Shown here: one piece after another, positions 53,490 through 54,457 of the stretch
How positions within the stretch are numbered: the first letter of the stretch is position 1
Layout: the number at the start of each line of letters is the position of its first letter
Position numbers and translations under genes: made by a program
Notes under the pieces: generated by a model
Told to the model about the DNA's origin: nothing
Database searches by the model: none
Seen by the model: the letters and a program-made list of their open reading frames with translations, nothing else
Source of the DNA: Stratiolaelaps scimitus
Lineage: Eukaryota > Arthropoda > Arachnida > Mesostigmata > Laelapidae
DNA length: 64,000 bases
Assembly (NCBI GenBank): GCA_019614645.1
Contig: JABWDB010000004.1
Span: 21,266,001-21,330,000, forward strand
Reading direction: 5' to 3'

Positions 53490-53943
53490 ATCACCAGCAA
53501 CTCGGACGTCTTACGTTCGTTAGCACGCGGATCAACCGTGAAAGAGGAAGACATCATCGCCTTGTTACATAAAGCTGATTGTGTCGTCAGTTAGTTAGTT
53601 AATCGTGTTTTGTCTGTTGTATCAATGGGATGTGTATGGGTGTATTGATGCGATTCGGTTCAGTTGGTGCTTCTTCTACGATTGCTGTGCTGGATGCCCG
53701 CCTCGACTCGTAGGCCTAGAGACACTCTTCACAACACGAACTAGCGACTGCAGAGCTACCGCAACATGACACGGCAACATACGCACACACACCTCCGGCA
53801 ACAAACAACACTCGCTGCTACAAAAGCAGCCAGCTAGTCAATCAATAGGATGTTACAGCTGTCGCTGAGAGTGTGTCACGTTGAGAGTGGTATCTAAATA
53901 ATAATAATAATAACAACAACAACAACTCTACGATTACGTACTG
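53490..53943 (+). repeat. Large hairpin, left arm C
   Basis: The arm of about 450 bases starts at accagcaactc (53493) and ends at cgattacgtactg (53943). Its reverse complement is at 54006-54457 with obvious collinear matches, such as cgcggatcaaccgtgaa, atcaatgggatgtg, gatgcccgcctcgactc and gagtgtgtcacg. It includes an AAT/AAC run and a CA run. A 20-base segment near 53560 is missing from the other arm. Confidence 0.92.
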
Positions 53944-54005
53944 CCGCCGACAGTATATACCTGCCACTTTTACTGGCTAATTCGCCGCTTGCCGTTGTTC
54001 TGTCG

Positions 54006-54457
54006 ACAGTACGCAATCGTAATGTTGTTATTATTATTATTTAGATACCACTCTCAGCGTGACACACTCTCAGCGACAGCAGGAACTTCCAACTGATTGA
54101 CTAGCTGGTTCGTTTTGCGGCCGCGAGAGTTGTTTATTGTCGGAGGTGTGTCTGTGTGTGTGTGTTGCGGTAGCTCTGCAGGCGACCAGTCGCTAGTTCG
54201 TGTTGTGAAGAGTGTCTCTAGGCCTATGAGTCGAGGCGGGCATCCAACACGGTGACCGTAGCAGAAGCACCAACTGAACTGAACCGAATCGTATCAACAG
54301 ACACACACACACACACACATCCCATTGATACAACAACGAACAAAACACGATTAACTAACTAACTAACTAATTAACTAACTGACGACACAATCGATAATGC
54401 TGTCCTTCTTCACGGTTGATCCGCGTACGAACGAACGTACACCGCAGAGTTGCTGGT
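54006..54457 (-). repeat. Large hairpin, right arm C'
   Basis: This arm is collinear in reverse complement with 53493-53943, across a loop of about 62 bases (53944-54005). The arms differ by scattered substitutions and by the length of CA, ACTA and AAT microsatellites, so they have diverged for some time. I recognise no coding sequence in arm or loop. Confidence 0.92.

What the first reader, a model, noticed from the sequence alone, without database searches (positions are those of the whole stretch)
53490..54457. Large imperfect hairpin: two collinear arms of about 450 bases with a loop of about 62 bases
Seen directly: the two arms match in reverse complement from end to end. Differences are scattered substitutions, one 20-base indel and microsatellite length changes. 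Transcription through it would give a long double-stranded RNA. Long-hairpin RNA loci of this kind feed the siRNA pathway in insects. The other reading is a foldback transposon whose ends form the stem. The abrupt start at accagcaactc on both sides favours a single inversion-duplication or element insertion.
Basis: partly seen in the sequence, partly recalled or inferred. Interest (0 to 1): 0.75.

Follow-up and report, generated by a model that had tools for sequence, protein, structure and literature searches.

The report
Old single-copy inverted duplication beside MAEA
A stretch of about 470 bases was copied backwards next to itself long ago, in a small patch of repeats found at one place in this animal genome; it could fold into a long RNA hairpin, but nothing in the sequence shows that it is used, so it looks ordinary.

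Summary
The hairpin is real. Arms about 53490-53958 and 53994-54460 align in reverse complement over 438 columns with 57 mismatches (13.0%) and 14 indels around a centre of about 35 bases. As RNA it folds at -634.5 kcal/mol; 0 of 20 shuffles fold as well. The finding missed that it abuts a 522-base repeat unit at 52390-53489: two direct copies plus a truncated inverted third. Direct copies differ by 12.1%, inverted ones by 10.7%, hairpin arms by 13.0%, with overlapping intervals, so the arms are no better kept than a direct repeat. Mismatches show no G-U bias (14 G-U, 19 A-C). Searches of the window's own genome (426 Mb, 145 contigs) place both parts only here, whereas a retrotransposon piece of the same window, as control, gave 41 matches. 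No target-site duplication beyond chance, and no Pfam or Rfam support. Best reading: an old local inverted and tandem duplication between CtBP and MAEA, drifting neutrally. A foldback transposon family is disfavoured. An endo-siRNA hairpin locus is possible but has no positive evidence beyond shape; small-RNA reads would decide.

The parts
53490..53958 (+). left arm of the hairpin
   Evidence: 438 columns aligned to the right arm, 13.0% mismatch, 14 indels; blast 53486-54464
53959..53993 (.). centre of the hairpin, outside the aligned arms
   Evidence: outside the arms as aligned; partly paired in the RNA fold
53994..54460 (-). right arm of the hairpin, reverse complement of the left arm
52390..52911 (+). 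repeat unit U1 (about 522 bases)
   Evidence: direct match to 52912-53289 and inverted match to 53312-53489
52912..53289 (+). repeat unit U2, direct copy cut short after about 29 bases of the second part of the unit
   Evidence: 12.1% mismatch to U1 over 346 columns
53312..53489 (-). repeat unit U3, truncated inverted copy of 52716-52893, ending at the hairpin's left edge
   Evidence: 10.7% mismatch to U1 over 177 columns

Best explanation
An old, local, non-mobile rearrangement. A segment of about 470 bases was copied in inverted orientation beside itself, and next to it a 522-base unit was duplicated once directly and once inverted. A fold-back or template-switch repair event during replication could make such a patch, possibly in a single episode since the three copy pairs are similarly diverged. 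The copies have since drifted by substitutions, small indels and microsatellite changes. If transcription crosses the patch the RNA would form a long duplex, but no sequence evidence shows that this is used. Shown: arms, adjacent repeats, similar divergences, a single location as far as the genome searches reach, no target-site duplication beyond chance. Inferred: the repair mechanism, a single episode, and the lack of function.
For: Real inverted repeat. Adjacent direct and inverted copies with overlapping divergence: 13.0%, 10.7% and 12.1%. In the own genome the hairpin gives 4 matches: itself, its own inverse and two of 31-35 bases over its AAT/CAA repeat; a 251-base arm piece gives 2, itself and its inverse, at E up to 10; the U array gives 3 rows, all in its own place. 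Positive control: 41 matches, its own included, for a retrotransposon piece. G-U to A-C is 14:19 on the + strand, p=0.49. No significant Rfam or Pfam match.
Against: Mismatches along the arms are somewhat clustered (variance/mean 1.6, permutation p=0.02); drift with patchy gene conversion would explain that, but so would local constraint. A 37-base identical run exists, though 25% of simulations reach it. Gene conversion could also have levelled the three divergences. The mechanism leaves no diagnostic trace here, and no related species was available for an ancestral state.
Confidence: 0.77

Rival explanations
1. A hairpin-RNA locus: transcription across both arms gives a long double-stranded RNA that Dicer cuts into endogenous siRNAs against some target gene.
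For: Very stable fold on either strand: -634.5 and -656.2 kcal/mol, 0 of 20 shuffles as good for each. Drosophila hpRNA loci are also inverted repeats, and one of them (hp-tHMG-solo) has a local tandem duplication of its left arm (PMC10317233, passages); here the tandem unit beside the hairpin is not related to the arms.
Against: Arms diverged as much as the neighbouring direct repeat and show no wobble bias. No extended match to another gene in the genome, whereas the young hpRNAs described in PMC10317233 section 12 carry pieces of their targets; an old one need not. No expression data. Presence of Argonaute and Dicer could not be checked because the search did not complete.
Confidence: 0.14
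2. A foldback or MITE-like DNA transposon whose long terminal inverted repeats form the stem.
For: Shape: long inverted arms with a short middle, next to tandem units, recalling Tetris of Drosophila virilis (PMC4079207, passages). A lone or truncated copy can lack duplications: the Tm1 element at Cg-1 has none (PMC3169594, passages).
Against: One location in 426 Mb with a working control; very diverged copies could be missed. Target-site-duplication candidates at the hairpin: 3, all of 4 bases, against a random mean of 4.7 (99 of 200 random placements had as many). No transposase among the 6 and 10 reading frames that were scanned.
Confidence: 0.06
3. An assembly artefact, the second arm being a fold-back copy of one strand.
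For: Hairpin artefacts are known in long-read data (recalled).
Against: 57 substitutions and multi-base indels between the arms; only 5 of 14 indels are single-base. The same degree of divergence is seen in the direct repeat beside it.
Confidence: 0.03

Closest known systems
Fold-back / template-switch inverted duplications (PMC3907307, passages; PMC7954356 and PMC8604942, search listing with start of abstract only)
   Same: An inverted copy beside its source with a single-copy spacer.
   Different: The human cases in PMC3907307 are large and have spacers of hundreds of bases or more; here the arms are about 470 bases, the spacer about 35, and the copies are diverged, so the junctions are blurred.
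Drosophila hpRNA loci (PMC10317233, passages and section 12)
   Same: Inverted repeat of a size that could give a long duplex RNA.
   Different: Those were identified by Dicer-2-dependent siRNAs and primary transcripts; neither was testable here, and no target homology was found.
Foldback elements such as Tetris (PMC4079207, passages) and Tm1 (PMC3169594, passages)
   Same: Long inverted arms; tandem units nearby.
   Different: Those are families with several or many copies and mostly 8-10 base target-site duplications; this one was found at a single location without them.

Membership tests
Foldback DNA transposon | dispersed copies in the genome | tested here: not met
   only its own place; control retrotransposon piece 41 matches
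Foldback DNA transposon | 8-10 base target-site duplications | tested here: not met
   scan of boundaries within 12 bases: at the hairpin 3 candidates, all of 4 bases; none of 7 or more
Foldback DNA transposon | long inverted repeats at both ends | tested here: met
hpRNA / endo-siRNA locus | long inverted repeat able to form duplex RNA | tested here: met
hpRNA / endo-siRNA locus | primary transcript and Dicer-dependent siRNAs | not testable with these tools
   no RNA data held
hpRNA / endo-siRNA locus | homology of the arms to a target gene | tested here: inconclusive
   no extended match in the genome; siRNA-length matches would escape the search
Local inverted duplication | both copies adjacent, inverted, at a single genomic location | tested here: met
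Known structured RNA family | match to an Rfam model | tested here: not met
   0 at gathering score in the window; in 52300-54600 one weak match, 15.5 bits against a cut-off of 65

The most novel reading that the evidence does not exclude
The patch is an old, single-copy hairpin-RNA locus upstream of MAEA that makes endogenous siRNAs in an arthropod-like animal (my guess from the CtBP and MAEA sequences, no call names the species), with the inverted U3 copy next to it as a second, smaller hairpin.
Probability: 0.1. Interest if true: 0.55.

Novelty: new member of a known kind. Interest (0 to 1): 0.2.

Why it matters
As an old inverted duplication it matters little beyond a worked case: the neighbouring direct repeat serves as an internal control showing that the hairpin arms are no better conserved than copies that do not face each other in the stem. 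If small RNAs were found from it, it would be a hairpin-RNA locus whose target could then be sought.

Tried and rejected
Rejected: chance or microsatellite match; raw-read fold-back artefact; coding origin of the arms (of 14 indels between them 5 are multiples of three; no Pfam family above chance in the frames scanned from the locus); kinship between the hairpin arms and the U units (scores within shuffles); a larger palindrome around both (the flanks 50000-52389 and 54465-57500 share only short, weak matches, the best E 1e-4 over 48 columns); an insertion of the hairpin into the U array (the right flank does not clearly continue the unit: inverted score 24, 4 of 50 shuffles as high).

A 6-base repeat GCAACT on both sides of the U array was seen, with 10 candidates there against a random mean of 8.1; 56 of 200 random placements had as many, so I do not count it. 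Flank comparisons scored above every shuffle for some pairs (up to 41 against a shuffle maximum of 27; 6 of these exceed all 50 shuffles for flank against arm and 1 for flank against U1). I take these for simple-repeat matches but did not check each; one search found no shared 16-mer between the patch and the rest of the window once simple ones were left out.

Led nowhere: exact patterns in the viral and prokaryote collections and blastn in phages and plasmids (0 matches each); reverse-transcriptase homologues (30 proteins, no organism names). How common such repeats are in this genome was only glimpsed: in 20 sampled stretches of 10 kb (two contigs) one inverted repeat of at least 100 bits was found, a 252-base palindrome, and none of this size. 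Literature: six searches, from which four papers were opened. Species not identified.

Full report
What is there. Of the three self-matches above 70 bits in the window, the strongest is a symmetric inverted match at 53486-54464. Aligned arm to arm (53490-53958 against 53994-54460) there are 438 aligned columns, 57 mismatches (13.0%, interval 10.2-16.5%) and 14 indels of 1 to 12 bases. The centre left over is about 35 bases. As RNA the + strand folds at -634.5 kcal/mol against a shuffle mean of -278, and the - strand at -656.2 against -296; 0 of 20 shuffles reach either value.

What the finding missed. Directly to the left lies a unit repeated at a spacing of about 522 bases: U1 at 52390-52911, a direct copy U2 at 52912-53289, and an inverted, truncated copy U3 at 53312-53489. 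U3 ends where the hairpin begins. U1 against U2 differs by 12.1% (42 of 346 columns, interval 9.1-16.0%), U1 against U3 by 10.7% (19 of 177, interval 7.0-16.2%). These intervals overlap that of the hairpin arms. The direct pair U1/U2 cannot pair with each other in a stem, so it is an internal control: the hairpin arms are not better kept than it.

Is pairing selected? If the RNA duplex mattered, transitions that leave a G-U pair on the transcribed strand should be favoured. Counts are 14 G-U against 19 A-C on the + strand (p=0.49), which read 19 against 14 on the - strand, and 5 against 6 for U1/U3 (p=1.0). Mismatches are mildly clustered (permutation p=0.02), while 25% of simulations reach the longest identical run, 37 bases. 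Of the 14 indels 5 are multiples of three, and the frames scanned from the locus match no Pfam family above chance, so there is no sign that the arms are coding.

Is it mobile? The window lies in an assembly of 426,401,914 bases in 145 contigs, at contig C4, 21266001-21330000. There the hairpin matches itself, its own inverse, and two places over 31-35 bases of its AAT/CAA repeat (4 matches in all). A 251-base arm piece finds only itself and its inverse even at E up to 10 (2 matches). The U array finds only its own locus (3 rows). The same search with a reverse-transcriptase piece of the same window finds 41 matches, its own included, 27 of the 41 at 99-100% identity (257 candidates, 40 scored), so dispersed elements are detected when present. 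The control is a young family; the search would be weaker for old, very diverged copies, though it did find the second arm at 76% identity. The tool warns that counts are lower bounds and that common words are skipped. A scan for target-site duplications gave, observed against random mean, 3 against 4.7 for the hairpin, 4 against 7.8 for U1/U3, 3 against 5.5 for the whole patch and 10 against 8.1 for the U array; of 200 random placements 99, 111, 109 and 56 had as many. A foldback element family, as described for Tetris with 8-10 base duplications (PMC4079207, passages) or Tm1 with mostly 9-base ones (PMC3169594, passages), is therefore disfavoured. One Tm1 element in that paper lacks duplications, so their absence alone would not decide.

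Surroundings. On the + strand the MAEA gene follows: its first coding exon starts with ATG at 58731 (MADIKSLEYPTLKVPYE...), later exons are recognisable to about 62081, and the frame at 60654-61139 matches MAEA in the PDB (5e-30). On the - strand CtBP has its likely ATG at 21038 (PDB match 5.7e-128). The hairpin lies about 4.3 kb before the MAEA start codon. Whether a 5' untranslated exon of either gene crosses it is unknown. Between the two start codons I scanned 11 distinct reading frames with Pfam; apart from the reverse-transcriptase piece none matched above chance, but they are a choice and not all frames.

How it most likely arose and works. Adjacent, inverted copies at a single location with a short spacer fit a fold-back or template-switch repair event; fold-back formation is described for human inverted duplications with short inverted homology at the spacer (PMC3907307, passages). 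The similar divergence of all three copy pairs suggests, but does not prove, one episode. I infer no present function. An hpRNA role, as in Drosophila where such loci are identified by Dicer-2-dependent siRNAs (PMC10317233, passages and section 12), remains possible at about 0.1-0.15, since the structure would serve and no RNA data were held.

Limits. Twenty 10-kb stretches from two contigs of the genome gave one other inverted repeat of at least 100 bits, a 252-base palindrome, and none as large; this is too small a sample for a base rate. Searches for the Dicer and Argonaute families did not complete.

Noticed in passing
21946-22857 (- strand): Reverse-transcriptase fragment of a retrotransposon (Pfam RVT_1 at 26.3 bits, just under the curated 29.6) with at least 41 matches in the genome, 27 of them at 99-100% identity: by inference a recently active family, sitting upstream of the CtBP coding exon.
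   Followed up: partly
58731-62081 (+): MAEA (GID/CTLH E3 ligase subunit) gene, several coding exons recognised.
   Followed up: partly
20100-21218 (-): CtBP coding exon (2-hydroxyacid dehydrogenase domains), likely ATG at 21038.
   Followed up: partly
L018:5902-6153: A 252-base palindrome at 90% identity with no evident loop, found in the genome sample; perhaps a MITE. A copy search did not complete.
   Followed up: partly
60458-60566: Tandem array of a 37-base unit, 2.9 copies at 95% matches, between coding exons of MAEA.
   Followed up: no
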